Assembly (NCBI RefSeq): GCF_015326965.1 | Contig: NZ_CP017659.1 | Span: 682,001 to 746,000 of the forward strand | DNA from: Paenibacillus sp. JZ16 | Lineage (GTDB): Bacteria > Bacillota > Bacilli > Paenibacillales > Paenibacillaceae | Reading direction: 5' to 3' | Length of the DNA: 64,000 nucleotides | Part shown: in pieces, positions 18,351-63,500 of the stretch | Numbering within the stretch: position 1 is the stretch's first letter | How the letters are laid out: each line of letters opens with the position of its first letter | Translations under genes and position numbers: made by a program | The notes under the pieces: model-generated | Told to the model about the DNA's origin: nothing | What the model saw: only the letters and a program-made list of their open reading frames with translations | The model's database searches: none

Positions 18351-18516
18351 CTGCCCGTTAGCTTAATGAAATTGTATGAAAATCTAATTAGATACTTATC
18401 TAATTGGTAATCGGTACAAGTTCTTGTCCTCTTCTCGGGACAAGAACTTGTACCGATAAAACAAAAAAGCCGCTAAATTAGCGACATTCTATGGGACATG
18501 ATCTTGTCCCTCGACA
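18351..18516 (+). repeat. Family-1 intergenic repeat, copy A (complete)
   Basis: Modules in order: left end ctgcccgttagcttaatgaa (18351-18370), a gatacttatctaattggtaa segment, stem-loop 1 with 19-bp perfect arms (tcggtacaagttcttgtcc, 18411-18429; complement 18438-18456), an A-run, stem-loop 2 (gccgct aaatt agcgac, 18470-18486), and a tail with a further ttgtccctcgaca ending at 18516. It lies 70 bases downstream of the nucleotidyltransferase stop codon. Confidence 0.85.
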
Positions 18517-18586
18517 GATGTCCCCCATTTGGTAAAAAAGAGACAGCTTTTATGCTGTCTCCGATATTCAACTAACGTACCTGGTG

Positions 18587-19357
18587 TTAGCCGGAGGAAG
18601 TTCTGGAAGCAGCCATTGCATTTAAGGTGTTCTCAAAATAGCTATATACTTCATCTGCAATTCCCAGAAACTCTTCAACAAGTACATTATTACCATCCAA
18701 GTAACAAGCATACAGATAATCAACTAAAGCGGAGTCAATCTCACAATAGTTTAATATGGCATTCTTCATCTTAATAATGTCATCTTGCCATACACCTGTA
18801 TCTTCTAAAACCAAAGAGTATAATGCACGAATTAATCTCTTAGAGTAACCTTTAATATATCTAGTTTTCATTGTGTTATCACTAGCATTAGAAAGTAAAC
18901 GATATATACGATCTACTTCCTCCTTGGTCTCTGTATTTAAGTCTAAAATGAACGCTGGAGAAATAATTATCGGTGGTACTTTTTCACCAACGTCATCACC
19001 ATATATGCAAACACAAATTATCTTAACCCAAAAACCCCACTCATTTGGTTTACTTAATACATCGTCAATCGAGCAAATTGTCGTATCAATCTTAGTTAAT
19101 ACTGGATATTCTTTTAAAAGCCTGTCTTTAATATTTGACAATCTTTCGTAATCAATATCTTTGGGATTTACACATACAATAGTAAAGTCTGCATCTGACT
19201 TAAAAGGTTTAGCCGTTCCTTTTGGAATCGAGCCACACATATAAATGCTATGAATCTTACCTTTAAATTCGGTAAGTATATTATCTATATACTTATCAAC
19301 AAAATCCTTATATTCACTTTGTATTACAATTCTATTTATAACTTTTTCTAATATCAT
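18587..19357 (-). CDS. Nucleotidyltransferase (aminoglycoside adenylyltransferase-like)
   Basis: A 256-residue protein with the polymerase-beta-type nucleotidyltransferase motif YMCGSIPKGTAKPFKSDADF (GS...KG...SDxD, about residues 40-59), the metal site that transfers a nucleotide to a hydroxyl, and a helical C-terminal region like that of ANT-type resistance enzymes. AGGAGGAG precedes the ATG. It sits alone between two same-direction family-1 repeats (A and B), a cassette-like setting. Its upstream region shares sequence with that of the acetyltransferase at 38.1 kb. Substrate unknown; antibiotic modification is an inference. Confidence 0.8.
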   Translation of the reverse strand: MILEKVINRIVIQSEYKDFVDKYIDNILTEFKGKIHSIYMCGSIPKGTAKPFKSDADFTIVCVNPKDIDYERLSNIKDRLLKEYPVLTKIDTTICSIDDVLSKPNEWGFWVKIICVCIYGDDVGEKVPPIIISPAFILDLNTETKEEVDRIYRLLSNASDNTMKTRYIKGYSKRLIRALYSLVLEDTGVWQDDIIKMKNAILNYCEIDSALVDYLYACYLDGNNVLVEEFLGIADEVYSYFENTLNAMAASRTSSG

Positions 19358-19394
19358 TTAGACTCCTCCTAAACTAAGAACTTCTTTCGACTGA

Positions 19395-19445
19395 GGTCTT
19401 ATCTACGAACTTCGTAAATAACTTCATTTGTAGAGTATTCGCGAA
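19395..19445 (-). repeat. Segment shared with the region upstream of the acetyltransferase gene
   Basis: About 51 bp (gtcttatctacgaacttcgt... to gagtattcgcgaa) match 38691-38742 with scattered differences. In both places it lies between a resistance-like gene's start and a repeat left end. In the minus-strand reading here it gives NTLQMKLFTKFVDKT, in the other NTLHIE*FAKYVNKT, so it may descend from a coding sequence that I do not recognise. Confidence 0.5.
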
Positions 19446-19459
19446 ATCAATAAACTCCC

Positions 19460-19621
19460 CTGCCTGTTAGCTTAATAAATTTAATTAATAGTTCAATACT
19501 TATCTAATCGGTAATCGGTACAAGTTCTTGTCCTCGACTCGGTACAAGAACTTGTACCGATAAAACAAAAAAGCCGCTAAATTAGCGACTTTCTATGGGG
19601 CCGAGTTCTTGTCCCTCGACA
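19460..19621 (+). repeat. Family-1 intergenic repeat, copy B (complete)
   Basis: Same modules as copy A: ctgcctgttagcttaat, ttatctaatcggtaatcgg, stem-loop 1 with 17-bp arms (19515-19531/19544-19560), stem-loop 2 (19572-19590) and the tail gttcttgtccctcgaca. It lies upstream of the nucleotidyltransferase, in the same orientation as copy A. Confidence 0.85.
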
Positions 19622-19724
19622 CAAATTGCTCCATCTATTGCCTCTTACATTCTCATATACTTTTCGTATGTATACTAGATATTTATAGTATTTTAATGGT
19701 ATTTCATTTGCTCGCCTACATGAA

Positions 19725-19765
19725 AAGAAATAGACCGCCCGCACTAAGGTAACGGTCTTATTTCT
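19725..19765 (-). terminator. Terminator after the YesS-like regulator
   Basis: Arms agaaatagaccg and cggtcttatttct (one bulged base) enclose a 15-base loop about 80 bases after the stop codon of the regulator gene; on the minus strand the stem is followed by ttttcatg. Confidence 0.6.
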
Positions 19766-19841
19766 CGTACTAACTTCTGTGGCCGACTGCTCTTTATGCA
19801 GTTATTCTGCTTAGGAGTCGTGTTCCAGCACGACGCTTTAC

Positions 19842-22433
19842 TTATCCGTTTTTCTTCATTCGGTATTGCCCGGGCGTCATGCCTTTCTGCTTGCGGAATA
19901 GCCGGATAAAATACGAGGGATGATAACCGACCGACTCGGCGATCTCGTTCACTTTGAGATCGGTCGTGCACAGCAGCTCACAGCCCCGTTCAAGACGAAG
20001 TTCCATGACATAATCGACGAAGTTTTTCCCGTGGGCTTGCTTGAATGAGCGGCTGAGCGTATAAGAACTGACGCCAAAACGTTCCGCACAGCTCTCCAGA
20101 GAGAAATCTGCCGTATAATCACGTTCGATCTCCTCCTTGACTCTTTCGGCGAGACGATCAGTATACAGCCGATCGCTACCATCGATCTCGCGGCCATAAG
20201 GTTCCAATACCTGTGTACGCATAAAGGCGGCCATTGCTTTGGGCTGGCGTATAGTGGCAAGACGTTCATACAGACCCATAAAGTCGACGTGCTCGGATGG
20301 AGCACCGTTCTCCATCATCGTGTGGAGCAGACTGCCGAGCAGATGCAAAGTCAGATTACGCATTTCTGGCTTCGAGGCCGCTCGGCGTGCCAGCTCATCG
20401 ATAAATTCATCCGTCAGCCGGGCCGCTTCCTCGATTTGGCCAAGCTTGACACTGCGGAGAAGCTCACGTTCGAGCTCGAATGGATAAGTGCTCTGCTCAT
20501 CAAGATCCGGCATCCATTCATCCAGATGCAGAACCCGACAATCTTCGTCATGCTGAATATGACGCAGCGCAGCTCGCAGAGAATGAAGCAGCTCCGGCAC
20601 TTCCAGAATTCCGGAAGCACTGCCTGTGCACACTAGGGTCTGCAGCCGCAGCACAGAGCGTATCGTACCTGCCAACTCTCCCGCCAGCGCTTTCCCCAGT
20701 ACGTTCAACCGCTGTACATCGCCCTCTTCATTTGCAGTATCACCTTGGATCTTATCGGCTGAACTTTGCAAATCGTACGTATGTTCTCGATCCGTCTCGG
20801 CTGTCACGCCGCTTTCACCCATGGAATAAGGAATCAGCACGGCAGCGGTCGAATCCTGAAAATTTACAACGATTGCACGTTTTGTACGCTGCTCCACAAA
20901 TTCACGGGCTACGTTGGCGGCAGCGAACGTCATCAGAAGTTCATCTTCTTCGCGGAACTTCGATTCCGGCGGCGATAGCACGCCGACCTGCAGCAAGAAA
21001 ACTAACATCCGCTCGTCGGGATGGATCGACCATCCGAATCTTTCCATTCGCGACAGCAGTTCTCGCTCGCTCAATGTCTGATAATGTCCCTGCATCAGCT
21101 GCATCAAAAAGGCCGATCTCAATTCGGGATACGTGTGTTCGAGCCGGGCTTCGGCTTCTCTTTTGGCATCGGATAGACCGCGCCAACTCGTCTCGATATA
21201 GTCCAGCTCGTCGTAGGGATGCATATTGTTCTCTATTCCGGTACCGTCAGGTCCGTTTTTGGAACGCTGGCTTATGCTGATTTTCCGCAGCAGTCCGCTC
21301 AGGCCTTTTTCTTGTTCAGGTGTTTCTGCCGTCCCGACGGCCCTGTCCCCTGAAGGCTGACCGAGCGCCGGTGAAAACTGGCTGTTAAGGATTTGTACCA
21401 ATCGACCTATCGGCCGGTGCAATCGATGCGAAGCCAACCAGGCGATCAGCAGCGCCAGCAGCATACCGGCAAAACTCACGGCGAGCAGCGAACGCGAGAG
21501 CAGCACGACAGGACGAGTTAGCGTTTCTAAAGGCGACACCGTCACATAAGTCCATTCGACCCCCGGACGATGTAATTGGCTATGGGAAACGGAGTAGGTT
21601 TTGCCCTGCCATTTGAACAGATAAGAGTCCGGTGTGTCCGAGACCTGAGTTCGAAGCTCCTCACGCAGCGCGGATTCGAAAGTCGGGGTTCGCATCGGAT
21701 CATCCGACGGCACATCCGACATGCGGATTATGGGTGGTCCGGAACTTGCATATAGAAACGAAGCGCCTTTATCATCGAACGATACCTGGCGCATCCGTTC
21801 TTCAATTTTATCTCTGTCCATGTTCAATAGAAGAGCTCCATAAGGATCTCCGTAAGCAGGCAGCTTCCGGACTAATACAACCTCTCCGTTCTCGGAAGCC
21901 GTCCACCGAAAATTATCCAGCCAATACAAAGCGGACGGGGCATCAACAATACTCTGAAACCGCTTACTATCTTCTGCGATCGAGATTTTCCTTAACCCTT
22001 CCGTATCCGACAGCAAAAGCGGTTCGTTACGAGCAAGCAGCAGCTTTGCGTCTTTCAGCTCCGGATAAGACGCTTTCATCAGTCCCAGAAAGCGATACAG
22101 CTCCTGGGTTCTCTGGTATTCCATACGAAGATTTGCTCTTCTAAGATCACCGTCAAGTCTCGGATCTAGCGCCCAACGGGCCGCAGACTGTTCCACCTGC
22201 ACGAACAGTTCGTCCATGCTTTCTGCCGAGCGTTTAACGAGTGCCCGGTGGCTGCTCATCACCTCGCGTTCGATGTGCTGCGTACCGAGCACATAAGACG
22301 AGAAGCCGATAACCGCTGTTGGAATACTCGACATGCACAGTGCCAGGATCAGGCTGTAACGATAAAAGCGTCCTCTTCCTTCCCGGCTTCGACTCGTCCA
22401 CCGAAAATTTAGCCAGCTTCGAACATCAGTCAC
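19842..22433 (-). CDS. YesS-like AraC-family regulator with extracytoplasmic sensor
   Basis: An 863-residue membrane-bound regulator. One TM helix near the N-terminus (LILALCMSSIPTAVIGFSSY) leads to a large outer sensor region (about 50-300), a second TM (LLAVSFAGMLLALLIAWLAS), a HAMP-like and helical cytoplasmic region, and a C-terminal AraC helix-turn-helix pair (CAERFGVSSYTLSRSFKQAH; VNEIAESVGYHPSYFIRLFR; MTPGQYRMKK). This architecture controls neighbouring sugar ABC importers in Bacillus and Paenibacillus. A GTG start follows GGGGGAGCAGGA. It is encoded 145 bases after the binding protein and presumably senses the sugar or a loaded binding protein outside the cell. Confidence 0.92.
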   Translation of the reverse strand: MTDVRSWLNFRWTSRSREGRGRFYRYSLILALCMSSIPTAVIGFSSYVLGTQHIEREVMSSHRALVKRSAESMDELFVQVEQSAARWALDPRLDGDLRRANLRMEYQRTQELYRFLGLMKASYPELKDAKLLLARNEPLLLSDTEGLRKISIAEDSKRFQSIVDAPSALYWLDNFRWTASENGEVVLVRKLPAYGDPYGALLLNMDRDKIEERMRQVSFDDKGASFLYASSGPPIIRMSDVPSDDPMRTPTFESALREELRTQVSDTPDSYLFKWQGKTYSVSHSQLHRPGVEWTYVTVSPLETLTRPVVLLSRSLLAVSFAGMLLALLIAWLASHRLHRPIGRLVQILNSQFSPALGQPSGDRAVGTAETPEQEKGLSGLLRKISISQRSKNGPDGTGIENNMHPYDELDYIETSWRGLSDAKREAEARLEHTYPELRSAFLMQLMQGHYQTLSERELLSRMERFGWSIHPDERMLVFLLQVGVLSPPESKFREEDELLMTFAAANVAREFVEQRTKRAIVVNFQDSTAAVLIPYSMGESGVTAETDREHTYDLQSSADKIQGDTANEEGDVQRLNVLGKALAGELAGTIRSVLRLQTLVCTGSASGILEVPELLHSLRAALRHIQHDEDCRVLHLDEWMPDLDEQSTYPFELERELLRSVKLGQIEEAARLTDEFIDELARRAASKPEMRNLTLHLLGSLLHTMMENGAPSEHVDFMGLYERLATIRQPKAMAAFMRTQVLEPYGREIDGSDRLYTDRLAERVKEEIERDYTADFSLESCAERFGVSSYTLSRSFKQAHGKNFVDYVMELRLERGCELLCTTDLKVNEIAESVGYHPSYFIRLFRKQKGMTPGQYRMKKNG

Positions 22434-22577
22434 TCCTGCTCCCCCTTTTCTCTATACACTATTAACAGTCTACATACTACATCATTTTATAAGAAAGGGA
22501 ACATATACAATAGAGCCCCCGCTTCCGGAGACTCCCCTGTTTACATGCACCTTTTTCGGAACAATTCAGCCAGCCGC

Positions 22578-24092
22578 TTATTGCTCCGCTTGACGGTCGG
22601 CATAAGCCTGATTCAGCTCGTCCGTAATTTTTTGCAGATCTGAATCATTTTTCAATTTCTCAACAAATTTGTCCCAGTCCGACAGCGACAGCTTGCCGAG
22701 TATAATCTTGGTTTTCATATCCTGAATATTCTTCGCCAGCTCAGGTCCCACCGAAATATTCGTTTCCGAATACAATCCAATCGCTCTGTCAGGAACACTT
22801 ATTTCTGCACGCTCGTCGATGATCTTTTTGTTCCGCTCAAAAATCTCCAGTGGCATACCGCCCCGATACGCGCGCATATATTTGTCATAATTCATGAAGA
22901 TTTGACCAAGCGCCTGCGAGCCGACGATATCGGTCTTGGCCTTATCCGTCGCCATCTTGATTCCGTTCTCTTCAGTATAATGAACACCTTCCAGACCGTA
23001 GCTGGCCAGCGTTCCGCCTTCTTCCGACGCGCCATAGTCCATCAGTTCAAGCAGTTTTTTCATTTTTTCTTCCGATACCGTTTTGGGAATCACAAACATC
23101 CCGAAGAATCCGCCGTCTTTGTTGGTCCAGCCGTTCATGGAGACAAGCGGCAGAAAATCCGCGTCCGGGTTGCTCTTCAGATTCGCTTCCATTGGCTCCC
23201 ACGCCGCTTCGACCGTGTTAACGGCGGCGCCTGCACGGCCCGCATTCAGCTGATCCTTGGTCTGGCTCTCTTTCAGAACAGCGAGATCTTCCGAGATCAA
23301 CCCTTCAGCATAAGCTTTGCTTAACCATTCCAGAGCATCGCGCATTTCCGGCAACAGGTTAACGTTGACCAGCTTGCCGTCGACATCTTTCCAATCTCCG
23401 GTATTTTGCGTGAATGCGCTGACGATTGCCCCATAGCTGCCCATATTACTTTGATTGACCAATCCTGTGAATCCCATCGTATCGTCTTTACCATTGCCGT
23501 CCGGGTCGTTTTTCGTAAATGCTTTGAGCACTTCGTAAAATTCGTCTGTCGTTTCCGGAATCTCCATGCCCAGATTGTCTAGCCAGTCTTTACGTAGGAA
23601 CAGGAATGGGCCTCCTTCGACCGGACGCACCCGAGGAATCCCATAATTTTTGCCGTCGGCCTGCTTGGTGTTGATCCAGGACTCTTTCGGAAACCCAGAG
23701 AGGTTAGGGTAGTCTTGAAGATAAGGCGTCAGATCCCAGAACGCACCCTGCTTCACCATAGTACGTACCTGAGCCGAGAAAGGATCATCGACCAGCATCA
23801 GATCGGGAATCTCACCCGACGCCAGCGTAACGTTTACCTTGTCGCCATAGCTGTTTGGTGATACCCACGTGATATTGAGATCGGTATTCGTTCTCTTCTC
23901 GATCTCTTGAATGATCACATTGTCTTCTCCGGGCGGTTCAGGTGTAAAATACATCGACATGATACTGACCGGCATCGGCTTTCCATCTTCCGGCACGCCG
24001 TTTTCCGCGTTTTGACTGCTGCAGGCCGCTGTAACCAGAGACAGAGCCATAATGGATGCAAACCCCAATTTCGCTCCTATTTTTTTTCTCAC
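22578..24092 (-). CDS. Extracellular sugar-binding lipoprotein (LipO-like)
   Basis: A 504-residue family-1 solute-binding protein. A signal peptide ends in the lipobox SLVTAACSS, so the protein is tethered to the membrane. The PEPPGEDNVIIQEIEKRTNT start, RKDWLDNLGMEIPETTDEFY core, and FGMFVIPKTV region are typical of the LipO/YtcQ group found with LplB/YtcP permeases. A GTG start follows AAAAGGGGAG. It is the third gene of the importer operon. The ATPase is not in the operon; such systems usually share an MsmX-type ATPase encoded elsewhere (established for B. subtilis). Confidence 0.92.
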   Translation of the reverse strand: MRKKIGAKLGFASIMALSLVTAACSSQNAENGVPEDGKPMPVSIMSMYFTPEPPGEDNVIIQEIEKRTNTDLNITWVSPNSYGDKVNVTLASGEIPDLMLVDDPFSAQVRTMVKQGAFWDLTPYLQDYPNLSGFPKESWINTKQADGKNYGIPRVRPVEGGPFLFLRKDWLDNLGMEIPETTDEFYEVLKAFTKNDPDGNGKDDTMGFTGLVNQSNMGSYGAIVSAFTQNTGDWKDVDGKLVNVNLLPEMRDALEWLSKAYAEGLISEDLAVLKESQTKDQLNAGRAGAAVNTVEAAWEPMEANLKSNPDADFLPLVSMNGWTNKDGGFFGMFVIPKTVSEEKMKKLLELMDYGASEEGGTLASYGLEGVHYTEENGIKMATDKAKTDIVGSQALGQIFMNYDKYMRAYRGGMPLEIFERNKKIIDERAEISVPDRAIGLYSETNISVGPELAKNIQDMKTKIILGKLSLSDWDKFVEKLKNDSDLQKITDELNQAYADRQAEQ

Positions 24093-24144
24093 TTGAATCT
24101 CCCCTTTTATTCGGATATATAAATCAGCTTGCCTGTACCTGCGC

Positions 24145-25023: not shown

Positions 25024-25080
25024 AGGAAACCCGCCCTCCTTTCTTTTCTTTACTCCGGTTGGAACCTATGAACCTTCCTT

Positions 25081-26717: not shown

Positions 26718-26732
26718 GCCTATTTATTTGCT

Positions 26733-30664: not shown

Positions 30665-30782
30665 TATAATCGGTAATCGGATCAAGTTCTTGTCCATGGC
30701 TCGGGACAAGAACTTATACCGATAAAATAAAAAAGTCGCTAAAATAGCGACTTTCAATGGGATAAACTTCTTGTCCTTGACA
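30665..30782 (+). repeat. Family-1 intergenic repeat, copy C (left end missing)
   Basis: Begins at ataatcggtaatcgg, with stem-loop 1 (atcaagttcttgtcc / gggacaagaacttat), stem-loop 2 with perfect arms gtcgcta/tagcgac, and the tail acttcttgtccttgaca. The cccgttag left module is absent. A CzcO-like gene fragment abuts its left border and an Acb2-like fragment its right border. Confidence 0.8.
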
Positions 30783-30952: not shown

Positions 30953-31037
30953 GCTGCCCGTTTAGCGAGGTTGCCGTTCAATTATGCTGCAGCCTCATGG
31001 TTCCTTTTATTTGAGCTATCGTTTCCCGTTAGTTCAA
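30953..31037 (+). repeat. Family-2 intergenic repeat (degenerate copy)
   Basis: Left end ctgcccgtttagcg, a diverged middle with gctgcagc, and right end gagctatcgtttcccgttagttcaatga. The right end overlaps the last codons and stop of the 31029-31412 gene on the opposite strand. Confidence 0.6.
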
Positions 31038-31412
31038 TGAATGATTAACAACATGAAAACCACTCACTTTGTATCCGTCAAAATTAGCTTTAAAAGTAAT
31101 TTGAACTATATCCGAGTAAGAATTTGTAGTAACTCGTCCTTCTAGTATGAACTCATGTTGAGGATAAGAGTTCGATTTCCTCAATGGTAAGATATGCTGT
31201 CTATCGATGAGAAAGTTACTAGCATACTCTTTCCTAAGTACGTCCATGATCTTTGGACGAAGTTCAAAAATAAGAACTTCTTCCAATCTCTTATGTTGAA
31301 TATCGACATTATTCATAGTTGGCGACTCATCGCTGTATGCATCAACACCATCCAATATTGTAAAGTTGATAACCCCTATGGCCCAAATCAAAATAATACA
31401 TCTCCCCCACAT
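31029..31412 (-). CDS. Small secreted protein, hypothetical (possibly DUF3888-like)
   Basis: A 127-residue protein with an N-terminal hydrophobic signal segment (RCIILIWAIGVINFTIL), then a short conserved-looking body (LEEVLIFELRPKIMDVLRKE; EFILEGRVTTNSYSDIVQIT). The pattern is reminiscent of DUF3888-type secreted proteins of Bacilli, with low certainty. Its last codons (HSLN-stop) are formed by the family-2 repeat end, so the natural C-terminus may have been replaced. It is bracketed by a family-2 repeat and family-1 copy D. Confidence 0.55.
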   Translation of the reverse strand: MWGRCIILIWAIGVINFTILDGVDAYSDESPTMNNVDIQHKRLEEVLIFELRPKIMDVLRKEYASNFLIDRQHILPLRKSNSYPQHEFILEGRVTTNSYSDIVQITFKANFDGYKVSGFHVVNHSLN

Positions 31413-31467: not shown

Positions 31468-31719
31468 CTGCCCGTTAGCTTAATGAAATTGCATGTAAAA
31501 CATAGTTAGATACTTATCTAATCGGTAATCGGCTTATGTTCTTGTCCTTTACGGCAGTCGGTACAAGTTCTTATCCTCGACTCGGGACAAGAACTTGTAC
31601 CGATAAAAAAAGAGCCGCTAAAATAGCGGCTTTATATGGGATCATGTTTTTGTCCCTCGACATAAAAAAGCCGCTAAACTAGCGACTATCTATGGGAGCA
31701 TGTTCTTGTCCCACGTCAG
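31468..31719 (+). repeat. Family-1 intergenic repeat, copy D (expanded, with tandem modules)
   Basis: A long copy: left end ctgcccgttagcttaatgaa, gatacttatctaatcggtaa, an extra half unit ttatgttcttgtcctttacg, stem-loop 1 (31558-31606), stem-loop 2 with perfect arms agccgct/agcggct, tail gtccctcgacat, and then a second stem-loop-2 unit plus tail (aaaaaagccgctaaactagc... gttcttgtccca). The ~55-bp stem-loop-2/tail unit is thus tandemly duplicated. Confidence 0.85.
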
Positions 31720-35856: not shown

Positions 35857-35908
35857 TCTTGTACCGATAAAACAAAAAAGCCGCTAAATTAGCGACTTTC
35901 AATGGTTC
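35857..35908 (+). repeat. Family-1 intergenic repeat, copy E (right half only)
   Basis: Starts inside the right arm of stem-loop 1 (tcttgtaccgataaaac) and contains stem-loop 2 (gccgctaaattagcgac) and tcaatgg; the left module, left arm and tail are missing. It lies 80 bases downstream of the S41 peptidase gene. Confidence 0.75.
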
Positions 35909-35988
35909 CATCAAACCGGGTTTAAAAATTCAATTTTTTAACTTATAGTTCAAACGATAAATTTCTTGTCTATGTAGGAGAAAAGTGT

Positions 35989-38742: not shown

Positions 38743-38756
38743 GCTTTTGAACTATC

Positions 38757-38844
38757 CTGCCCCGTTAGCTTAAAGAGACAACTGATCGCTCTGACCAGCT
38801 GCCTTCTCTTCTTTATTCAACTATCGTTTCCAGTTTGTTTAATG
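38757..38844 (+). repeat. Family-2 intergenic repeat
   Basis: ctgccccgttagcttaaag, a palindrome caactgatcgctctgaccagctg with diverged arms, and right end aactatcgtttccagtttgtttaatgc. Confidence 0.7.
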
Positions 38845-38986: not shown

Positions 38987-39245
38987 TTAAGTTGGTCCAA
39001 CAGGTTCATACTTCCAGCCTACATTGATCCAATCATAAAGCTCTTGCGAGGTAAATCGGATTTTATTTTTGTTCTTTGTAAGTACAATTTCACCATCAAC
39101 GGGAGTGCATGTCTTGATAAGACGACCCTTACAGTTATACGCTGGTTCTAAAGTTATTAGATTACCGTTGATCATGTTTATTTTTAAAAGCAATGGAACT
39201 TTATCAGCCTCTAACTCGGTTGCCTGTTCGCTTGGACTTGAAAAA
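38987..39245 (-). pseudogene. Hypothetical protein, 5' end cut by repeat F
   Basis: The frame from the repeat border reads SSPSEQATELEADKVPLLLK, INMINGNLITLEPAYNCKGR, TCTPVDGEIVLTKNKNKIRF and ELYDWINVGWKYEPVGPT before a stop. It is protein-like but I do not recognise it. The open frame extends upstream only through repeat F, so the natural start is lost. Similar to the truncations at repeats C and H. Confidence 0.5.
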
Positions 39246-39316
39246 CTTGTACGATAAAACAAAAAAGCCGCTAATAAAGCGACTTTCAATGGGTCTATGT
39301 TCTTGTCTACCGACAG
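39244..39316 (+). repeat. Family-1 intergenic repeat, copy F (right half)
   Basis: Starts at aacttgtacgataaaac (inside the right arm of stem-loop 1), then stem-loop 2 (gccgctaataaagcgac) and the tail tatgttcttgtctaccgaca. Confidence 0.8.
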
Positions 39317-50761: not shown

Positions 50762-50881
50762 TTAAAATTCACCTCAACTAATACTTTATAGCTAGTATAT
50801 TGTTTATTTAGACTCTTTTCCATATGATTAGTATTTGATGGTAGTCTACACTCCTATGCAAAATTCTGACGTCTATGTAAT

Positions 50882-50899
50882 CTGCCCGTTAGTTTAATA
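50882..50899 (+). repeat. Isolated repeat left end (cccgttag)
   Basis: ctgcccgttagtttaataaa matches the left end of both repeat families but nothing of either follows. It abuts the stop of an unrecognised minus-strand membrane-protein-like frame (50897-51060, ending LLKPPFY) that could be a gene tail. Confidence 0.45.
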
Positions 50900-51068
50900 A
50901 AAGGGCGGTTTCAACAATGATATAGATAAAGCCATCATCGATAGTGAAATAATATATTTTTGTGAACTTTTGAACATTAGAGTAAGTAATACGCCAATCC
51001 AAACATATTGATCATCCCGAATCAAGCAAAGCACTATGATGCTTGCGGTTGCATACCCTTCCTCCCCT

Positions 51069-51110
51069 ACTTATCTAATCGGTAATCGGATATGTTCTTG
51101 TCCCTCGGCA
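51069..51110 (+). repeat. Family-1 intergenic repeat, copy G (minimal)
   Basis: Only ttatctaatcggtaatcgg joined directly to tatgttcttgtccctcgg remain; both stem-loops are deleted. It forms the end of a 28-codon transposase-like frame on the other strand. Confidence 0.65.
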
Positions 51111-51157
51111 TCTGTCACAATAGCGTGTTTGCCACAATCGATTCCTATCATAATCAT
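51071..51157 (-). pseudogene. Possible IS110-type transposase N-terminal fragment
   Basis: The frame MIMIGIDCGKHAIVTDAEGQ then EHIRLPIR-stop begins like IS110-family recombinases (xGIDxxKxxHxxxxxDxxG, first catalytic Asp of the DEDD site) and runs out inside repeat copy G. Only this start is present. The short length makes the assignment weak. Confidence 0.35.
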
Positions 51158-54021: not shown

Positions 54022-54053
54022 CTACCCTCTATCTACCTGTGTCTAGATCGTAT

Positions 54054-56978: not shown

Positions 56979-57064
56979 AAATGTACCTCCCTGTATTTGG
57001 CTTTCTCTCTTTCTGTGAAATAGGAAGCAGCGCACAAAAGTGAGCTGCTTCCTGGATGATCTAC

Positions 57065-58405
57065 CTATTCGTTTAAATAGGTGGTGACTCGGTTCTGGAT
57101 CAGCTTTGCCACTTCTTCTGCAGTTTTCTGCCCGCTGAAGTACGCCATGGACTCTTCACCCGCAATCGATATCACTTTACTGTCCAGATCCACGTATTGA
57201 TCCGCGGACTGAACCATTTGTTTAAACACGTTGAATTGTTCGTCGGGTACTTTGGCCGGCTGCCCATTCGGAAGCTTATAGTCGCCGCTCCCCACCTTTT
57301 CCTGAAGGTCACTGATCAGCTTTTCATTCACGGATTTAAGCATCGAGAACCCTTCTCTTTCCTGCAGTAATTGTGCTTCTTCAGACAATAGGAAGGAAAT
57401 AAACTTCCAAGCTTCTTCTTGTGCTGGCGATTTGGCATGGATAGCGAACCCGGATGATGTAAATACTCTCGCACCTTTTTGACCTGCGGTTTCTCCCGCT
57501 CTAGGTAACAGCATGATCTTTGGATGATCAAACAACATATAAGGGCCTTCGACAAAATGAAGCGGCGACATAATCGGTGTGGAGCTGAACAATTGATTGC
57601 CCGGCTTTGCCTCGTCGGACGTGATGATCTTCTCATCATTCATTTTCATCGCTTGCTGAAGCAAATCTACAAATTCCGGAGAATCGAACAATGCCTTTTT
57701 GGCGGAAGTTTCAACAAATGCAGCGTAGTTTTCATAGAGCATCTCTTGGAAGAGGTATTCCGGCGGATAGGATGCTAATGCATACATCTCGTCGGCGCCG
57801 CTCTCCTTAGCCTTCCGGATCACTTCTTTCGAAACCTTCTGGAACTCCTTCCAATCCCAGGTTTTATCATCGAACGTCACATTAGCTTTGCCCAGCATGT
57901 CCCCATTACCAACCAATACTCTCAAGGAGTATCCCAAAGGGATGGTATACACCCCGTCATTCAGTTTCAGACCGTCCAAAATATTCATTTGCAAATCATC
58001 TTTATGGAGTGTCTGATCTTGCTCCAGCAAACCATTCATATTGAGTAGGAAGCCTTTGCTCACATATTCTTTAACAGGCAAGCCGCCAACTTCAATGATA
58101 TCCATCCCGTTTCCTGATAACATGGCTGTATTCGTTGCAGTACGATACTTCTCGAATTCCCCAGGTCCCCATTGTTCACCCATGCTTTTATATGCATGGA
58201 TCTGCAGGTCGATATCCGGGTATTTCTCTTCGAACTTTTTTTCCAGCGTTTGATAGAACGGAGTCGACTCTGTCAGTGACAGGGTAAGCACCGTTTTTCC
58301 CTCTTTCGTTGCGGGCTTATCCGCGTTCCCGCCTTCTCCTGACCCGCAAGCGGTTAAACTCGCGATTAAAGCTCCCATAGAAATAAGTAAATGCCATTTT
58401 TTCAT
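57065..58405 (-). CDS. Extracellular solute-binding lipoprotein (family 1)
   Basis: A 446-residue sugar-binding protein with the lipobox SLTACGSG after a short signal peptide. The body has NTAMLSGNGMDIIEVGGLPV, SFLLSEEAQLLQEREGFSML and FSGQKTAEEVAKLIQNRV, typical of MalE-type binding proteins. The start at 58405 is set by AGGAGG. It serves the two permeases encoded upstream; the ATPase is again absent from the operon. Confidence 0.92.
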   Translation of the reverse strand: MKKWHLLISMGALIASLTACGSGEGGNADKPATKEGKTVLTLSLTESTPFYQTLEKKFEEKYPDIDLQIHAYKSMGEQWGPGEFEKYRTATNTAMLSGNGMDIIEVGGLPVKEYVSKGFLLNMNGLLEQDQTLHKDDLQMNILDGLKLNDGVYTIPLGYSLRVLVGNGDMLGKANVTFDDKTWDWKEFQKVSKEVIRKAKESGADEMYALASYPPEYLFQEMLYENYAAFVETSAKKALFDSPEFVDLLQQAMKMNDEKIITSDEAKPGNQLFSSTPIMSPLHFVEGPYMLFDHPKIMLLPRAGETAGQKGARVFTSSGFAIHAKSPAQEEAWKFISFLLSEEAQLLQEREGFSMLKSVNEKLISDLQEKVGSGDYKLPNGQPAKVPDEQFNVFKQMVQSADQYVDLDSKVISIAGEESMAYFSGQKTAEEVAKLIQNRVTTYLNE

Positions 58406-58442
58406 CGTATAATTTCCTCCTGATATGTTCTGTTTACAACGC

Positions 58443-59597
58443 CTATTCCAAGCGAACTCGGTTGCCATCCTGCAGAGGCTCGCTGCTCTTCAGAATGATC
58501 TTATCTTGTTCATAAATGCTATCCGTTTGGATCATCGTTTCTTTGTCATTCCGCTCGCTGAACTTGATGTTGACTTTTCGGGCAACAAAAACGTTACCGA
58601 GTGCACCCGGCTGCTCTTCGACTACAAAAACGTACATGCCTTCCCGGTCCTGATGAACAGCTTCATTAGAAACAAGCAGCCCATGATCGAGAGAGCTTTT
58701 CTCGATGTTAATACGAGCCTGCTCACCTCCCTTCAGCTTGGCATCGATGAGTTTAATACGAATTCTCTTTTGAGGGACGGTTAGCGATCCCGTTCCTTCG
58801 GTTGCCCCCTCAATTATCGGTTCCGCATTGGTGATTTCTTCAATTACACCTTCTATGACACTGGTTTGCTGCTCTTTATCTGTGTGGACCTCTACCTCGA
58901 TCCGCTCTCCAACGGATATCCCAATACTAGACAATCGTTCTGCATCCGCATCAACGTCAAACCTATAACCCTGACTGCTATTCGCGACAATGACATCCGG
59001 CTCGCCCGCAGATGCAAGTCCTTCAACCGCATTCAGCTTCGTTACAATACCGTTAAAGGGAGCGGTAAGCATCTGTTCTTTTGCCAGTCGTTCTTTCATC
59101 TCGTTGATCTTGCGTTCTTGCGCAGCGATATCGAGTTTCCCTTTTTCAATTTCACGTTTCGCGCTGCGCAGTTTAAGCTCATCTTCCTCAATGGAAGATT
59201 GAATAAACTGATCCTGAAGATTTTGCTGCTCAATCCTCTGCTTTTCCAAATTCGTTACTTCAAGTTCGATTTCTTGTCTTGCCGCTACGTTGTCATAAGC
59301 GATAAGTTTCTGTCCCTTCTTAACACGTTCACCTTCTTTTACGTAAATCTGCTGAGCCTTCCAGTCGTTTGAACTGGATAGTTTGGCTTCGGCGATCGGC
59401 TGAAGTATTCCGCTTCCCGCGATCGATAGCTCAATGCCTCCCTGTTTCGGCTGTTCCGTGGTCACCTTGGGCAAGGTCAACGACTGCAGCGTGTTACTGA
59501 ACAATGTAAACAGCAGCAGCACCCCCATAAAACCCATGAACACGATTTGAAGGATTCGCTTTCGTCTTTGGTCAGCTAACCCTTTTCCAAGCTCCAT
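58443..59597 (-). CDS. HlyD/MacA-type efflux adaptor in a sugar-importer operon
   Basis: A 384-residue membrane-fusion adaptor with one N-terminal TM helix (ILQIVFMGFMGVLLLFTLFS), a lipoyl/barrel-sandwich half motif (GSGILQPIAEAKLSS; VKEGERVKKGQKLIAYDN), a coiled-coil hairpin (about residues 105-165, NLEKQRIEQQNLQDQFIQSS) and a second half motif (TAPFNGIVTKLNAVEGLASA) plus beta-barrel. The start at 59597 follows AGGAGG and AAAGG. Adaptors of this class usually work with MacB-type or RND exporters, none of which is adjacent; instead it sits between importer permeases and binding protein. Confidence 0.88.
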   Translation of the reverse strand: MELGKGLADQRRKRILQIVFMGFMGVLLLFTLFSNTLQSLTLPKVTTEQPKQGGIELSIAGSGILQPIAEAKLSSSNDWKAQQIYVKEGERVKKGQKLIAYDNVAARQEIELEVTNLEKQRIEQQNLQDQFIQSSIEEDELKLRSAKREIEKGKLDIAAQERKINEMKERLAKEQMLTAPFNGIVTKLNAVEGLASAGEPDVIVANSSQGYRFDVDADAERLSSIGISVGERIEVEVHTDKEQQTSVIEGVIEEITNAEPIIEGATEGTGSLTVPQKRIRIKLIDAKLKGGEQARINIEKSSLDHGLLVSNEAVHQDREGMYVFVVEEQPGALGNVFVARKVNIKFSERNDKETMIQTDSIYEQDKIILKSSEPLQDGNRVRLE

Positions 59598-59634
59598 ATC
59601 CTTTCTTCTCCTCCTAAAAAAACGTCCTAATAAG

Positions 59635-60513
59635 CTAACCCTTAACACCTGACAATTGAATGCCCTCTATGAAATACGACTCCGCATACAGAAATAACAT
59701 TACCATCGGGGCCATATAGAGCATGGATGCTGCAAAGGCAATCCCCCGGTCGCTATCATTAATCCTGGATAAAAAGACGGACAGCGGCTGCTTGAACGGG
59801 TCGTCCAAAAAAATAAGCGGCTGCTCCACCATGTTCCAATAATCAACGAACAGCAAGATCACAAGTGCGGCCAATCCCGGCATGATCATCGGAACAATCA
59901 TCGTTATAAAAATCCGCAAATGTCCGGCACCGTCTATTTTGGCAGCTTCAATGTAGGCATAGGGAATGTCCAGCATGAACTGTCTGAGCATAAATACGCC
60001 AAAAGCTGCGAAAATACCAGGAACAATGATGGCGCCCGTACTATTCAGCATGCCAAGCTTATCGACCATAATATAATTGGGTACCAGCGTGACTTGGAAT
60101 GGCATGAGCATCGTCATGACATAGACCAAAAACATCGTATCCCTGCCGCGGAATTTCAGCTTGGAGAATGCATAAGCAGCCAGTGCTGCGACGAGTGTCT
60201 GACCCACAATAATCGGCATCACCATGAACACGGAGTTCCAGAACATCGTCAGATACTTCGGGTTGTCAATGAAAACCTTCCCATACTGTGCAAAAGACAC
60301 CTTGTCCGGAATCAGTTTCAGATTTGCAAAAGAACCATCTCTACCAGGAATCATTTCTTTCATTTGACCGATGAGACCGTAATTGATCTGGATCTCCAGT
60401 TCTGTCATCAATGAATTTGTGAATGTAATCACAATAGGAGATATTAAGATCATGGCGATAACACCCATGACAAACGTTAAAGCACTTTTTTTCAATATGT
60501 AGGCTACTCGCAC
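59635..60513 (-). CDS. Carbohydrate ABC transporter permease (MalG-type)
   Basis: A 292-residue permease with six TM helices and the EAA loop YIEAAKIDGAGHLRIFITMI. The periplasmic-side segment between TM1 and TM2 is long (MTELEIQINYGLIGQMKEMI, GRDGSFANLKLIPDKVSFAQ). Second gene of the operon, 17 bases after the first permease. Confidence 0.93.
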   Translation of the reverse strand: MRVAYILKKSALTFVMGVIAMILISPIVITFTNSLMTELEIQINYGLIGQMKEMIPGRDGSFANLKLIPDKVSFAQYGKVFIDNPKYLTMFWNSVFMVMPIIVGQTLVAALAAYAFSKLKFRGRDTMFLVYVMTMLMPFQVTLVPNYIMVDKLGMLNSTGAIIVPGIFAAFGVFMLRQFMLDIPYAYIEAAKIDGAGHLRIFITMIVPMIMPGLAALVILLFVDYWNMVEQPLIFLDDPFKQPLSVFLSRINDSDRGIAFAASMLYMAPMVMLFLYAESYFIEGIQLSGVKG

Positions 60514-60530
60514 AGACTTCTCTCCACCTC

Positions 60531-61397
60531 CTATTCCATGTACTGCCGATGCCGGCGCTCAATCGCAAACAGCACTAGTACAATCAGTAAAATACAGAGA
60601 AACATCAGGGTTGCCGCCGCAGTCAGCTTCTGAATGTCGAGTGACACGAACATATTGTTCATATAATGCTGCATCATATAAATACTGTCATGGGGGTAAT
60701 CACCTGCGATCAGATACGTCTCACGAAACACTTTGAATGAATTGATAATGGACATGATCACAACAAAAAACATTGTGGAAGTCAGATAGACCAGAGTAAT
60801 ACTTCGGAATTGCCGTAAACGACCAGCCCCCTCAATCCGGGCCGTTTCGTAGTAACCCTTCGGAATTTGCTGTAGTCCCGCCAGGAATAAAATGACGTTG
60901 TAACCGATGTTCTTCCATAGGTACACAATGATTACGACCCAACGTGCCGATTCCGTCTTCATCCAGTCCACCCGTTCATATCCGAAGCTGTTCAGCCAGG
61001 CATTCAGGGAGCCGTTCCAATCAAACAGCAGCTGCCAGATCATGATGATGGAGGCGACGGGCACAACAAGCGGCATAACATAAGCTGTACGTAGCCATTT
61101 TTGAATATATGTATTTTTATTCAGCAGCATCGCTAACCCGAGTGACAGCATGACCATAAGCGGAACACTGACCGCACTGAAGTAAGACGTGTTGGATACC
61201 GCCTTGCGGAAGGAACTACTTTCAAGCAGTTCCAGGTAATTATCGAATCCCACAAATTCGCCGCCCACCGATTGGCTCATAAAGGAATAATACATACCCA
61301 TGGCAAACGGGATAAGATAAAAGAGTGTAAATCCGATACCGCTTGGCACGAGAAAAAACATGGCCGCCGAAGCATCCTGACGGAGCCATTTTTTCAT
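60531..61397 (-). CDS. Sugar ABC transporter permease (MalF-type)
   Basis: A 288-residue permease with six TM helices and the EAA loop YETARIEGAGRLRQFRSITL. First gene of the operon (permease, permease, HlyD adaptor, binding protein, secreted repeat protein). No adjacent sugar-specific regulator is seen; the VanRS-like system lies downstream past a terminator. Confidence 0.93.
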   Translation of the reverse strand: MKKWLRQDASAAMFFLVPSGIGFTLFYLIPFAMGMYYSFMSQSVGGEFVGFDNYLELLESSSFRKAVSNTSYFSAVSVPLMVMLSLGLAMLLNKNTYIQKWLRTAYVMPLVVPVASIIMIWQLLFDWNGSLNAWLNSFGYERVDWMKTESARWVVIIVYLWKNIGYNVILFLAGLQQIPKGYYETARIEGAGRLRQFRSITLVYLTSTMFFVVIMSIINSFKVFRETYLIAGDYPHDSIYMMQHYMNNMFVSLDIQKLTAAATLMFLCILLIVLVLFAIERRHRQYME

Positions 61398-61571
61398 GAT
61401 TGACTGATCCTTCCTTTCTCAGTAAAGTTTAAACCTCCATCCTGGCCTGTTACGCTTCCCAATGCATTTAGAATAGATGAGATTGCTTAAGAAAAAAGTG
61501 GGGAAATATTAAAAATACCTAAAATATTGAAGTGACTAGGCGATTTCGTTACAAACAAAAAGTGGTACAAC

Positions 61572-61602
61572 AAAAAGCACCTGAAAGTATCAGGTGCTTT
61601 TT
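61572..61602. terminator. Bidirectional terminator
   Basis: A perfect 13-bp stem (aaaaagcacctga / tcaggtgcttttt) with a 5-base loop and T6 on the plus strand, A5 on the left for the other direction. It insulates the permease promoter from the decayed region to the right. Confidence 0.8.
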
Positions 61603-61632
61603 TCGTGTACTTCAAAGTACTGTTGATTATCA

Positions 61633-61717
61633 AGCCCGTTAGTTGAAAAAAACAGCCGATCACGTTGGTCAGCTGCTTTGTTAATTTTCTTGAGCTGTCA
61701 TTTCCCGTTAGTTCAAT
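61633..61717 (+). repeat. Family-2 intergenic repeat (best-preserved copy)
   Basis: aagcccgttagttgaaaaaa, palindrome acagccgatcacgttggtcagctgc (diverged arms), tttgttaattttcttgagct, and right end gtcatttcccgttagttcaat. The right end sits four bases after the stop codon of a minus-strand coding remnant. Confidence 0.75.
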
Positions 61718-61720
61718 ATT

Positions 61721-61905
61721 TCATTTTCCCGATTTGGCTACCTCAATCATATCCTTCTTGCACAATTGGGTGCTTTCCTTCTCACGTGCTTCCATTCCGC
61801 TAAATTTAATAATTTCGCCAATTGTCCTTGTAGTTATGTTATTACGGTTATCAATATCTATTTTTCCTTTATACCCGAAGCGTGTATTGTGTTATTGGAA
61901 GTCCC
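61721..61905 (-). pseudogene. Unrecognised coding remnant
   Basis: The minus-strand frame RFGYKGKIDIDNRNNITTRT followed by IGEIIKFSGMEAREKESTQL and CKKDMIEVAKSGK ends in TGA at 61721; an upstream stop (EARDFQ-stop-HNT) breaks the same frame. The composition is protein-like. I do not recognise the family. The remainder, 61906-62109, holds nothing I can identify. Confidence 0.4.
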
Positions 61906-62109
61906 TGGCTTCCTGAATCATCTCTTACATGATCTTTTTCATTAGTAAAGTACATAGAAATCTTTCAACACCAGTAGCTCTTTCAGTATGAAATAGACGG
62001 AAGCGTAAGGGATTATTATCAGGATGGCGTTAATCGCAGATAACAGATCGGAGACGATAATCACTCCGCGCTTCTCTCCGGCAAGCTCGAACAGTCGTAC
62101 CATCCTGTT

Positions 62110-63035
62110 TTATTGGACAAAACCTTTGCCAGCTCGATTCGTGATCAAATCAACGATTCGTTCCATTGCTTTCTTCGCTTCCGGTAACGGAAACAAAGTG
62201 AAGATATGTATCATCTTCGGATATTCGTAGTAATCGATTGTGACGCCTTCCTTCCGGGCTTTGTTTCTGAGCTTCCGTGCGTCTGCGGCCATGAGGTCAT
62301 GAGTGCCGAAGAACAGGGAAACTTTGCCCAACCCTCGTAGGTTACCGTTAATCGGACTTAATCGATAGTCATTCAGGTCCGTATCGCCGGCATACAATTT
62401 TCCGACATAGGCGATCCGAGGAGGGGGTCTTTTTTCTCGAATGCCGGGATATCCGGATTAGACAACGTGATGTCTAGCCAAGGCGAGATAAGAATGATCC
62501 GACTCGGCTGGGGCATTGCTTTTTCCTTCAGTAATTGAGCGAGCCCTAACGCAAACCCGCCTCCTGCCGATTCTCCCATCAATACGATGTGCTGCGATGA
62601 AGTTTTCTTCAACAGCTGTTCATAAACGAAGAGCACCTGTTCATAGGATTCATGATGCTGATGATGAGGTGCTTTAGGGTAGACGGGTACGATAACTTGA
62701 TAACCGGTCATATCCGCTATTTTTCTAACAAATTTCCAGTTCATAGGCAGCGGCCGGTTAATATGCCCTCCACCTAACAAATAAATGATATATTTATGTC
62801 CTGCATGCTGATTGCCGCTTAGAACGTAGCAATCTTTCCCATAAGAGGGATCCATCACAATATCCCATTTCTGTTTGAGTTCTTCAGGCAACCTATAAGG
62901 TTCCGCATTCGCTATTCGTTTTTGATCAAGAAATTTCGCAAACCTCGCTTTGTCTGCAAAATTCTGTTTTCTACCGCTCATGTGCAGCATGGTTTCGATA
63001 AGCTTGCTTCGGATGCTTTGCTTCACTTCCATCAA
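62110..63035 (-). pseudogene. Alpha/beta hydrolase (HSL-type) with a frameshift
   Basis: The first part (63035-62400) has the hormone-sensitive-lipase-like layout: oxyanion LLGGGHINR (GG before H), nucleophile elbow LMGESAGGGFALGLAQLL (Ser), and SRIILISPWLDITLSNPDIP then KKDPLL. Near 62400 the frame breaks; a second frame continues AYVGKLYAGDTDLNDYRLSP with the catalytic Asp region FFGTHDLM and His region YYEYPKMIHIFTLFPLPEAK, ending at 62110. Between DPLL and AYVG only a few bases remain, so a small deletion is likely. Serine and Asp/His are on different frames, so no active enzyme results. Confidence 0.85.
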
Positions 63036-63082
63036 CCTCCTCAGTGGATTTCACGATGCAATATGCAATCGATACTACATGC

Positions 63083-63328
63083 TCAATATGAACAGAACAT
63101 GAAGCGAATGGGAAAAAGTGGTGGATCAGCAAGCAAAAAAGAGATGAACGGAATCGTCCACCTCTTAACCACACGAATAATTGAATTACGCGGCGATACG
63201 GCCTGTAAAATGACGGCCACCTTCATTCCTTTTTCTGCTGCGCTGTCAATCTCGACCGAACCGTTGTATAATTCAACCACACGTTTAACGATCGCAAGTC
63301 CGAGCCCGCTTCCGCCCGCTGCGCGGTA
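63083..63328 (-). pseudogene. Histidine kinase C-terminal remnant cut by repeat H
   Basis: The frame from the border of repeat H reads YRAAGGSGLGLAIVKRVVEL then YNGSVEIDSAAEKGMKVAVI, the G2 box and last strands of a HisKA-type kinase ATPase domain. All upstream parts are missing and the break at 63328-63330 coincides with the ctgcccgttag left end of the repeat. The C-terminal extension beyond VILQA looks non-native. Confidence 0.75.
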
Positions 63329-63330
63329 TT

Positions 63331-63500
63331 ACTGCCCGTTAGCTTAATAAATTGCATGGAAACTTAGTTAGATATCTATCTAATCGGTAATCGGCTCATG
63401 TTCTTGTCCGTCGACTCGGGACAAGGACTTGTACCGATAAAACGAAAAAGCCGCTTAAACAGCGACTTTCATTGGGAAGATGTTCTTGTCCTTTTCGGCA
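63331..63500 (+). repeat. Family-1 intergenic repeat, copy H (complete)
   Basis: actgcccgttagcttaataa, gatatctatctaatcggtaa, stem-loop 1 with a diverged left arm (ctcatgttcttgtcc / ggacaaggacttgta), stem-loop 2 (gccgcttaaacagcgac), tail gatgttcttgtccttttcgg. Directly abuts a truncated kinase gene on its left. Confidence 0.85.

What the first reader, a model, noticed from the sequence alone, without database searches (positions are those of the whole stretch)
18351..63500. Family-1 dispersed intergenic element: eight co-oriented copies with two stem-loops and three ttcttgtcc motifs
Copies lie at 18351-18516, 19460-19621, 30665-30782, 31468-31719, 35857-35908, 39244-39316, 51069-51110 and 63331-63500, all in the same direction. 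Complete copies share a left end (ctgcccgttagcttaatgaa), a near-perfect 17-19 bp stem (tcggtacaagttcttgtcc), a terminator-like stem (gccgct..agcgac) and a tail ending ttcttgtccctcgaca. Partial copies keep discrete modules (E and F only the right half, G only the outer parts, D a tandem duplicate), as expected for a modular, recombining element rather than a simple terminator. Arms covary or stay complementary in several copies. I know of no named family with this sequence.
Basis: seen in the sequence. Interest (0 to 1): 0.75.

Follow-up and report, generated by a model that had tools for sequence, protein, structure and literature searches.

The report
Integron-like gene-cassette array in Paenibacillus
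The repeated element is one type of joint in a very large array of exchangeable gene cassettes in a Gram-positive soil bacterium, built like an integron but apparently run by a different recombination enzyme.

Summary
In detail: all eight copies are present, co-oriented and far above chance. Genome-wide, the left-end 16-mer occurs 29 times forward and 0 reverse, all within a 0.6-Mb stretch of a 7.42-Mb chromosome. The interpretation changes. The left end, CTGCCC|GTTAGCTTAA, is a core shared with many short hairpin sites that have the layout of integron attC sites (74 distinct). DNA blocks shared between loci end at cores: 88 of 208 ends, against 13 by chance and 7 for the wrong strand. The window's nucleotidyltransferase cassette (18587-19357) is in 44 of 100 genus genomes. 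In 30 of these loci it ends at a core on the right in 15 and on the left in 12, with unrelated DNA further out. A Xer-like tyrosine recombinase, not IntI by the curated cut-off, sits inside the arrays in fixed orientation to the cores (265 versus 4). Core strand follows GC skew in 66 of 66 decidable loci. Family 1 is a cassette joint fused to a terminator. Best reading: a distinct integron-like system of Bacillales. The searches made found no description. Recombination is inferred, not shown.

The parts
18351..18516 (+). Family-1 element (core plus stem plus terminator; middle part missing)
18567..19473 (.). Exchangeable gene cassette between two family-1 elements; ends on the right at the core CTGCCTGTTAGC; its left core is not recognisable in this copy
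   Evidence: Same block in 44 of 100 genus genomes, 42 of them with 580 bp or more at 92-100% identity; ends at cores in part of them, unrelated outer flanks
18587..19357 (-). Cassette gene, 256-aa protein with a weak nucleotidyltransferase-domain match (PF01909)
19460..19621 (+). Family-1 element
30670..30778 (+). Family-1 right half (B), core part missing
31013..31038 (+). Core of type 2 (GAGCTATCGTTTCCCGTTAGTTCAAT)
31468..31662 (+). Longest family-1 element in the window (halves A and B)
31662..31717 (+). Extra terminator and tail in tandem
35858..35909 (+). Family-1 right-half remnant
38747..38805 (+). Core of type 1 followed by a hairpin (attC-like remnant)
39236..39315 (+). Family-1 right-half remnant
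50877..50905 (+). Core of type 1 followed by other sequence
51068..51120 (+). Remnant of family-1 left half A (without its core)
61617..61723 (+). Complete attC-like site: core 1, hairpin (ACAGCCGATCACGTTGGTCAGCTGCT), core 2
63332..63493 (+). Family-1 element

Best explanation
The copies are joints in a chromosomal gene-cassette array that works like an integron. Each joint carries a core made of two inverted arms around a 6-7 bp spacer (about TTCAACTAnC-CTGCCC or GTTTCCC-GTTAGYTNAA). A linked Xer-like tyrosine recombinase is proposed to exchange gene segments between cores. The ordinary joint is an attC-like pair of cores around a variable hairpin. Family 1 is a variant joint: one core (half A) fused to a minus-strand terminator (half B) that would end transcription of the gene on its right. 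Shown here by comparison: the sites, their strand lock, block ends at cores, the same cassette in many contexts, and the linkage and fixed orientation of the recombinase. Inferred: that this recombinase is the enzyme, that one folded DNA strand is the substrate, and that replication direction (or selection for genes co-directional with it) keeps the joints in one orientation.
For: Block ends (recombinase-containing blocks removed): 88 of 208 within 30 bp of a core-like site, against 13.1 (sd 3.3) at random and 7 of 208 for the core on the opposite strand. The window's cassette: 44 of 100 genus genomes, own included; in the 30 loci returned, a right core at the same place in 15 and a left core in 12, both in 8; outer flanks share 150 bp or more in 0 of 435 right pairs and 1 of 406 left pairs. 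Two segments duplicated inside the own array break at cores on both sides in at least one comparison. Site layout: 74 distinct sites, longest hairpin stems 7.5 bp on average against 4.2 shuffled. Recombinase: strict cores in its flanks 265 in one orientation against 4 in the other; its module lies between cores, with outer flanks that look unrelated. A 5.6-kb segment lies between the recombinase-side core and the nucleotidyltransferase cassette in one species, while in another that cassette directly follows the recombinase-side core, with a 16-bp overlap at the core. Strand lock: 29 to 0; skew agreement 66 of 66 decidable loci, 1 undecidable. Related cores in a second bacterial family, Sporosarcina, alternating in type around a 50%-identical recombinase.
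Against: No recombination was observed. The recombinase at E 1e-40 is absent from several genomes rich in cores (G001, G004, G005), so their arrays have lost it or use another enzyme. Only 39 of 78 recombinase genes have a core-like site 30-160 bp upstream and 41 of 76 one downstream. Both core types serve as break points, whereas in integrons crossover is at one box. 41 of 104 shared blocks have neither end at a recognisable core. Of 30 nucleotidyltransferase loci 13 have no core on the right and 2 have one only 69 bp further out; 18 have none on the left, the window's own copy included. Of 39 insertion-like gaps listed only 5 have cores at both ends (20 of the other 34 rows are one insertion in L213). 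Replication orientation judged by chromosome midpoint fits 34 of 41 sites, not all. On the Sporosarcina plasmid 2 of 7 CCCGTTAGYT matches are on the other strand. The strand lock can also arise from gene direction, which follows replication in these bacteria.
Confidence: 0.82

Rival explanations
1. A circularising transposon with a Xer-like recombinase and small hairpin relatives (MITE-like) that inserts beside genes; the genes between copies do not move.
For: The recombinase module is itself bounded by cores and its flanks look unrelated from genome to genome; some genomes hold several copies; short hairpin units look like minimal non-autonomous forms.
Against: A gene between copies is found at 92-100% identity in 42 genomes, with ends at cores in part of them, different joints beside it and unrelated outer DNA; block ends are at cores even after removing blocks with the recombinase.
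Confidence: 0.12
2. Ordinary intrinsic terminators amplified as a repeat, co-oriented only because the genes of the region are.
For: Half B contains a terminator on the gene strand; 53 of 56 copies have a minus-strand ORF as right-hand neighbour, in a region where most ORFs are on that strand; half B occurs near a gene end without a core on a Paenibacillus plasmid.
Against: Half A and the core are shared with recombinase modules and hairpin sites that lack half B; block ends lie at the core end of family 1 (17 of 208, null 0.3), less at its terminator end (5 of 208, null 0.4).
Confidence: 0.04
3. True integrons (IntI, attI, attC), only overlooked in these bacteria.
For: Same site architecture and a core close to GTTRRRY; cassette arrays. 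Integrons are reported from Firmicutes in general terms (PMC8618304, passage).
Against: The recombinase scores 84 bits against the integron-integrase cut-off of 265 and matches XerC, XerD and XerA models better; its best solved relatives are XerC-like, XerD and XerA; the commonest core GTTAGYT does not fit GTTRRRY at position 6.
Confidence: 0.05

Closest known systems
Integrons (IntI / attI / attC), in particular sedentary chromosomal integrons and CALINs
   Same: Large arrays of single unrelated genes; recombination sites of inverted boxes, spacers and a variable hairpin; core close to GTTRRRY; linked tyrosine recombinase, in half of the loci with a core upstream of its start; arrays without a close recombinase in some genomes
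   Different: Recombinase is Xer-like, not IntI by curated cut-off; core GTTAGYT with CCC before it; both cores act as break points; in the loci read (G000, G011) cassette genes point toward the recombinase; the recombinase gene itself sits between cores; joints can double as terminators; found here in Paenibacillus and relatives
Xer-recombined dif modules (pdif) of plasmids and elements that use XerCD (recalled, not tested)
   Same: Xer-type recombinase, gene modules between short inverted-arm sites
   Different: Own dedicated recombinase; hairpin paired sites; no dif-like match at the cores
Dispersed palindromic repeats of Bacillales such as bcr elements (recalled, not tested)
   Same: Short intergenic repeats with stem-loops
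   Different: Here the repeat bears a recombination core and marks ends of mobile gene segments

Membership tests
Integron | Integrase of the IntI family | tested here: not met
   NCBIfam integron integrase 84 bits, cut-off 265; XerC model 184 bits, itself below its cut-off of 335; IntI4 structure 51 bits against 109 for XerD
Integron | attC sites: R''-spacer-L''-variable hairpin-L'-spacer-R' (layout recalled) | tested here: met
   74 distinct sites with that layout; inner boxes only partly complementary (mean 0.66 of 14 positions at the best of nine offsets, 0.33-0.54 at the others), with a T-T mismatch in 43 of 74
Integron | Core box GTTRRRY (PMC8876359, passage) | tested here: not met
   Commonest core GTTAGYT; position 6 is C or T
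Integron | Gene cassettes exchanged at the cores | tested here: met
   by comparison only
Integron | attI beside the integrase gene where new cassettes enter | tested here: inconclusive
   39 of 78 loci have a core-like site 30-160 bp upstream of the recombinase; 35 of the 42 positions lie at 74-98 bp. One 5.6-kb difference between species at that site
Integron | Recombination of a single folded strand | not testable with these tools
   Needs an assay
Xer/dif modules | Site resembling dif | tested here: not met
Known RNA element | Match to an Rfam family | tested here: not met
   0 matches at gathering score in the window
Insertion sequence / MITE | Copies move alone, flanking genes stay | tested here: inconclusive
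   Genes between cores are shared across contexts, which this does not explain; that copies also move alone is not excluded

The most novel reading that the evidence does not exclude
An independently evolved integron: a gene-capture platform of Bacillales run by a dedicated Xer-family recombinase on folded hairpin sites locked to the direction of replication. Its joints also serve as transcription terminators, its recombinase gene is itself a cassette with a sequestered ribosome site, and in the window's genome it forms an array of hundreds of kilobases beside the replication terminus.
Probability: 0.5. Interest if true: 0.93.

Novelty: new variant of a known kind. Interest (0 to 1): 0.83.

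Why it matters
Integrons are the best-known machines that collect and reshuffle genes, and they are chiefly studied in Gram-negative bacteria. A comparable system with a different recombinase in Paenibacillus and relatives would show that the design arose or diversified more than once. It would explain part of the accessory gene flow in these soil and plant bacteria, and it would make testable which parts of an integron are essential (IntI insertion, single-strand folding, replication orientation). It also gives a simple way to find movable genes: look between the cores.

Tried and rejected
Rfam search of the window: nothing. Phage records: no match to the element. Search for dif near the arrays: no convincing dif; two weak matches, a palindromic one at 436,269 outside the array and one at 541,950. 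Integron attC by the GTTRRRY letter rule: does not fit. A first count of block ends demanded a strict core in both copies and gave 31 of 174. A second count of 269 of 540 was inflated by the recombinase module and duplicate records. It was replaced, in which 6 duplicate loci and 123 blocks with the recombinase were dropped. One search scored minus-strand loci without turning them and is superseded. (69 of 69 decidable loci) still held the 6 duplicates; without them gives 66 of 66. The exact two-core pattern is in 39 of 100 genus genomes (own included), with 4 hits of the reversed control pattern, but in only 3 of 398 genomes drawn from the phylum, one of them the own genome, so the exact core is narrow. 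The Sporosarcina plasmid shows that related cores exist outside it. Peribacillus and G051 recombinases: no clear matching cores, apart from one core-1-like stretch beside a Peribacillus recombinase. Nine literature searches listed no paper on cassette arrays in Paenibacillus. Passages only were read of six papers. PMC3382206: one Paenibacillus isolate, scored 0 in the table of class 1 integron components that was shown; [quoted passage not shown] PMC8618304 lists Firmicutes among phyla with integrons without detail. The others are PMC8138268, PMC8876359, PMC11089894 and PMC12690207. Most papers of subscription journals are missing from that library, and it holds no bioRxiv preprints.
Full report
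What was checked. All eight copies are in the window at the stated places. A profile from 11 long copies finds 56 copies on the plus strand in 420-1160 kb of the host chromosome, while each of 28 minus-strand hits overlaps a plus hit because the stem is a palindrome. Over the whole 7.42-Mb chromosome the left-end 16-mer (up to 1 mismatch) occurs 29 times forward and 0 times reverse, all between 482,720 and 1,089,553. The terminator module (up to 3 mismatches) occurs 36 times forward and 2 reverse between 482,865 and 1,126,421; one of the two reverse matches overlaps a forward one.

Where it lies. GC skew and gene strand flip at about 482 kb: skew is positive before it and genes are mostly plus just before it; after it skew is negative and genes are mostly minus. 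dnaA is at 4.37 Mb, so 482 kb is near the replication terminus. The first family-1 copy starts about 1.1 kb after the plus-strand gene that ends at 481,625. Copies are densest, and on average most complete, in the first 50 kb and thin out over 640 kb.

What the left end is. Duplicated segments inside the array break at one short sequence, about AACTAnC-spacer-CCCGTTAG. A 1.17-kb segment (two copies) starts at such a core and stops at another. A DUF218 gene has three copies: the third differs from the others outside a core on each side, while the first two share more on the left and part at a core on the right. A NIPSNAP-domain gene (two copies) breaks at the core on the left, but on the right the match runs on through a whole family-1 element. 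The core CCCGTTAG[CT][TG] occurs 65 times on the plus strand and once on the minus strand in 420-1160 kb, and not between 420 and 482 kb. It comes in two forms: core 1 (CTGCCC before GTTAG) and core 2 (GTTTCCC before GTTAG). Pairs of core 1 and core 2 about 70 bp apart enclose a hairpin of varying sequence. From 121 loci of own and related genomes 74 distinct such sites were collected. Consensus: TTnAACTATC CTGCCC GTTAGCTTAA ... hairpin ... TTTATTnAACTATC GTTTCCC GTTAGCTnAAT; longest hairpin stem 7.5 bp on average against 4.2 in shuffles; the inner boxes are only partly complementary. This is the box order of integron attC sites. Family 1 starts with core 1, so it is a joint of the same array with a different body.

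What family 1 is made of. Half A (87 bp, with the core) and half B (109 bp, stem plus terminator). In the 115 loci kept, half A has 61 plus and 0 minus hits. Half B has 113 plus and 52 minus hits; 49 of the minus hits overlap or adjoin a plus hit (palindrome) and three do not. Two of those three are in G010 stretches that had not been turned because they hold no strict cores. 49 of 61 A hits are directly followed by B. Shared blocks end at the core end of A (17 of 208; null 0.3) and less at the right end of B (5 of 208; null 0.4). On a Paenibacillus urinalis plasmid half B lies 125 bp from the 3' end of a CopD-family gene with no core beside it. So B looks like a terminator cargo and A carries the joint.

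Do genes move between the cores? Blocks of 300-5000 bp at 88% identity or more were compared among the 115 loci, with recombinase-containing blocks removed: 88 of 208 ends lie within 30 bp of a core-like site. Chance gives 13.1 (sd 3.3) within the blocks and 12.9 (sd 3.6) anywhere in the loci, and the core on the other strand gives 7 of 208. Both ends are at cores in 25 of 104 blocks, one end in 38 and neither in 41. The window itself holds the best case. The gene at 18587-19357, between the first two family-1 copies, is found in 44 of 100 genomes of the genus, own included: 42 with 580 bp or more at 92-100% identity and two with short fragments only. The tool returned 30 loci (the best 30 genomes among 46 places). 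A core stands at the same place on the right (22 bp after the query, 27 in one) in 15; two more have a core only 69 bp further out, three show a near-miss at the usual place, and 13 have no core by the rule used (the three near-misses among them). On the left 12 have a core at 150-151 bp and 18 do not, the window's own copy among them, though several show a near-miss there. Both ends: 8. Beyond the joints (from 250 bp on the right and 200 bp on the left) the flanks share 150 bp or more in 0 of 435 right-hand pairs and 1 of 406 left-hand pairs. The joint to its right is family 1 in some species and one of several attC-like hairpins in others. Eight loci show a different, shared left end, so part of the set is old or moves otherwise.

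The recombinase. The own genome has 6 matches to the tyrosine-recombinase family, 2 of them inside the array: a 289-aa gene at 511858-512727 and a 98%-identical fragment at 609568-609981. At E 1e-40 relatives of it, fragments and distant ones included, are in 17 of 60 genomes, own included. In the species collection 185 stretches encode a relative; the best 80 were kept, nearly all Paenibacillus, with Brevibacillus, Cohnella, some labelled Bacillus and one unnamed Bacilli bin. In the flanks of these 80 loci strict cores lie 265 times in one orientation relative to the gene and 4 times in the other. Thirteen loci were laid out and compared by eye. The usual order is a core-1 variant (CTGCCCTTTAGTTGAA, exact in 6 of 13, altered in most others), a GC hairpin, the gene, a leader in which AAAACCTCC can pair with GGAGGTTTT over the ribosome site (this or a like inverted repeat in 11 of 13; the other two are truncated), and core 2, which is degraded in several. 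The DNA outside looks unrelated. By curated models it is not an integron integrase (84 bits, cut-off 265), and it scores best with XerC, XerA and XerD models without reaching their cut-offs; the nearest solved structures are a XerC-like enzyme, XerD and XerA. In Paenibacillus sp. H1-7 the window's nucleotidyltransferase cassette directly follows the recombinase-side core. In Paenibacillus sp. PL91 a 5.6-kb segment lies between that core and the same cassette, and the alignments overlap by 16 bp at the core. That is what entry of cassettes at a recombinase-side site would look like; independent arrival of the cassette in both is not excluded. One search listed 39 such gaps in all: 5 have cores within 10 bp at both ends (four in the own array and this one), 34 do not, and 20 of those 34 are one insertion in L213.

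Strand lock. Among the named loci of 8 kb or more and the fetched stretches, those with at least two strict cores have them on the strand with negative GC skew in 66 of 66 decidable loci; one more is undecidable. By sites it is 369 to 13 (the 6 duplicate records removed; some genomes are represented by several loci). A rougher test places dnaA in 16 genomes and asks whether sites have opposite orientation on the two halves of the chromosome. Counted by hand from the places listed for nine of them: G001 8 of 8, G014 4 of 4, G030 3 of 3, G083 2 of 2, G087 2 of 2, G093 7 of 7, G094 4 of 5, G097 4 of 5, G078 0 of 3; together 34 of 41. The three G078 sites and the G094 miss lie within about 0.12 Mb of the midpoint, so the true terminus may explain them; the G097 miss does not. 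Seven genomes were left out because their places were not all listed or lie on several contigs; the cores read in G012 fit the skew but not the midpoint. Gene direction follows replication in these bacteria, so the two causes are not separated here.

Spread. The exact two-core pattern is in 39 of 100 genus genomes; the reversed-pattern control gave 4 hits in the same 100. It is in 3 of 398 phylum genomes, one of them the own genome. A recombinase 50% identical on a Sporosarcina psychrophila plasmid is surrounded, within 12.8 kb, by eight core-like sites of both types in alternation on one strand, between a mercury-resistance operon, a peptidase gene, an acetyltransferase gene and others. Over the whole plasmid CCCGTTAGYT is found 5 times forward and 2 reverse, against 0 and 2 for the control. 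So the system seems to reach beyond Paenibacillaceae, with variant sites.

Mechanism, and how sure. Shown by comparison: cores, box layout, break points at cores, cassettes in many contexts, linked recombinase, strand lock. Inferred: that the linked recombinase is the enzyme (arrays without it at this cut-off exist, e.g. G005), that single-stranded hairpins are the substrate, and that family 1's half B insulates cassettes by ending transcription of the gene to its right. Compared with integrons the working principle is the same. Membership is not claimed, because the integrase family and the core-box letters were tested and not met.

In print? Nine searches of the open library listed no account of such arrays in Paenibacillus. 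The one paper that one search listed, joining Paenibacillus and integrons, tested a single isolate by PCR for class 1 components and scored it 0 in the table shown (PMC3382206, passages). Most subscription papers and all bioRxiv preprints were not covered.

Noticed in passing
G000 near 482 kb (outside the window): Sharp flip of GC skew and gene strand, with a drop in GC content, where the array begins, next to the presumed replication terminus.
   Followed up: partly
Recombinase leaders, 11 of 13 loci: The ribosome site of the recombinase is enclosed in an inverted repeat (AAAACCTCC...GGAGGTTTT or like it), suggesting translational control.
   Followed up: no
L248 (Sporosarcina psychrophila plasmid): Mercury-resistance operon, peptidase, recombinase and acetyltransferase genes separated by alternating core 1 and core 2 sites on one strand; there the recombinase gene faces the other way relative to the cores than in Paenibacillus.
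   Followed up: partly
G000 506505-507784 and 513390-514669 (L063): Two inverted copies of a transposase-bearing sequence (99.9% identical over 1280 bp, IS3-like by eye) in the array near the recombinase gene; the transposase ORF called is shorter in one.
   Followed up: no
L247 (Paenibacillus urinalis plasmid) 6001-6111: Family-1 half B stands near the end of a CopD-family gene with no core beside it.
   Followed up: partly
L251, L254, L271-L273, L276-L278: The nucleotidyltransferase cassette has a second, shared left end (about TAACGTTTTGTATTGACGACGTCCTGGCCCCTT) in these loci, unrelated to the cores; its origin is unexplained.
   Followed up: no
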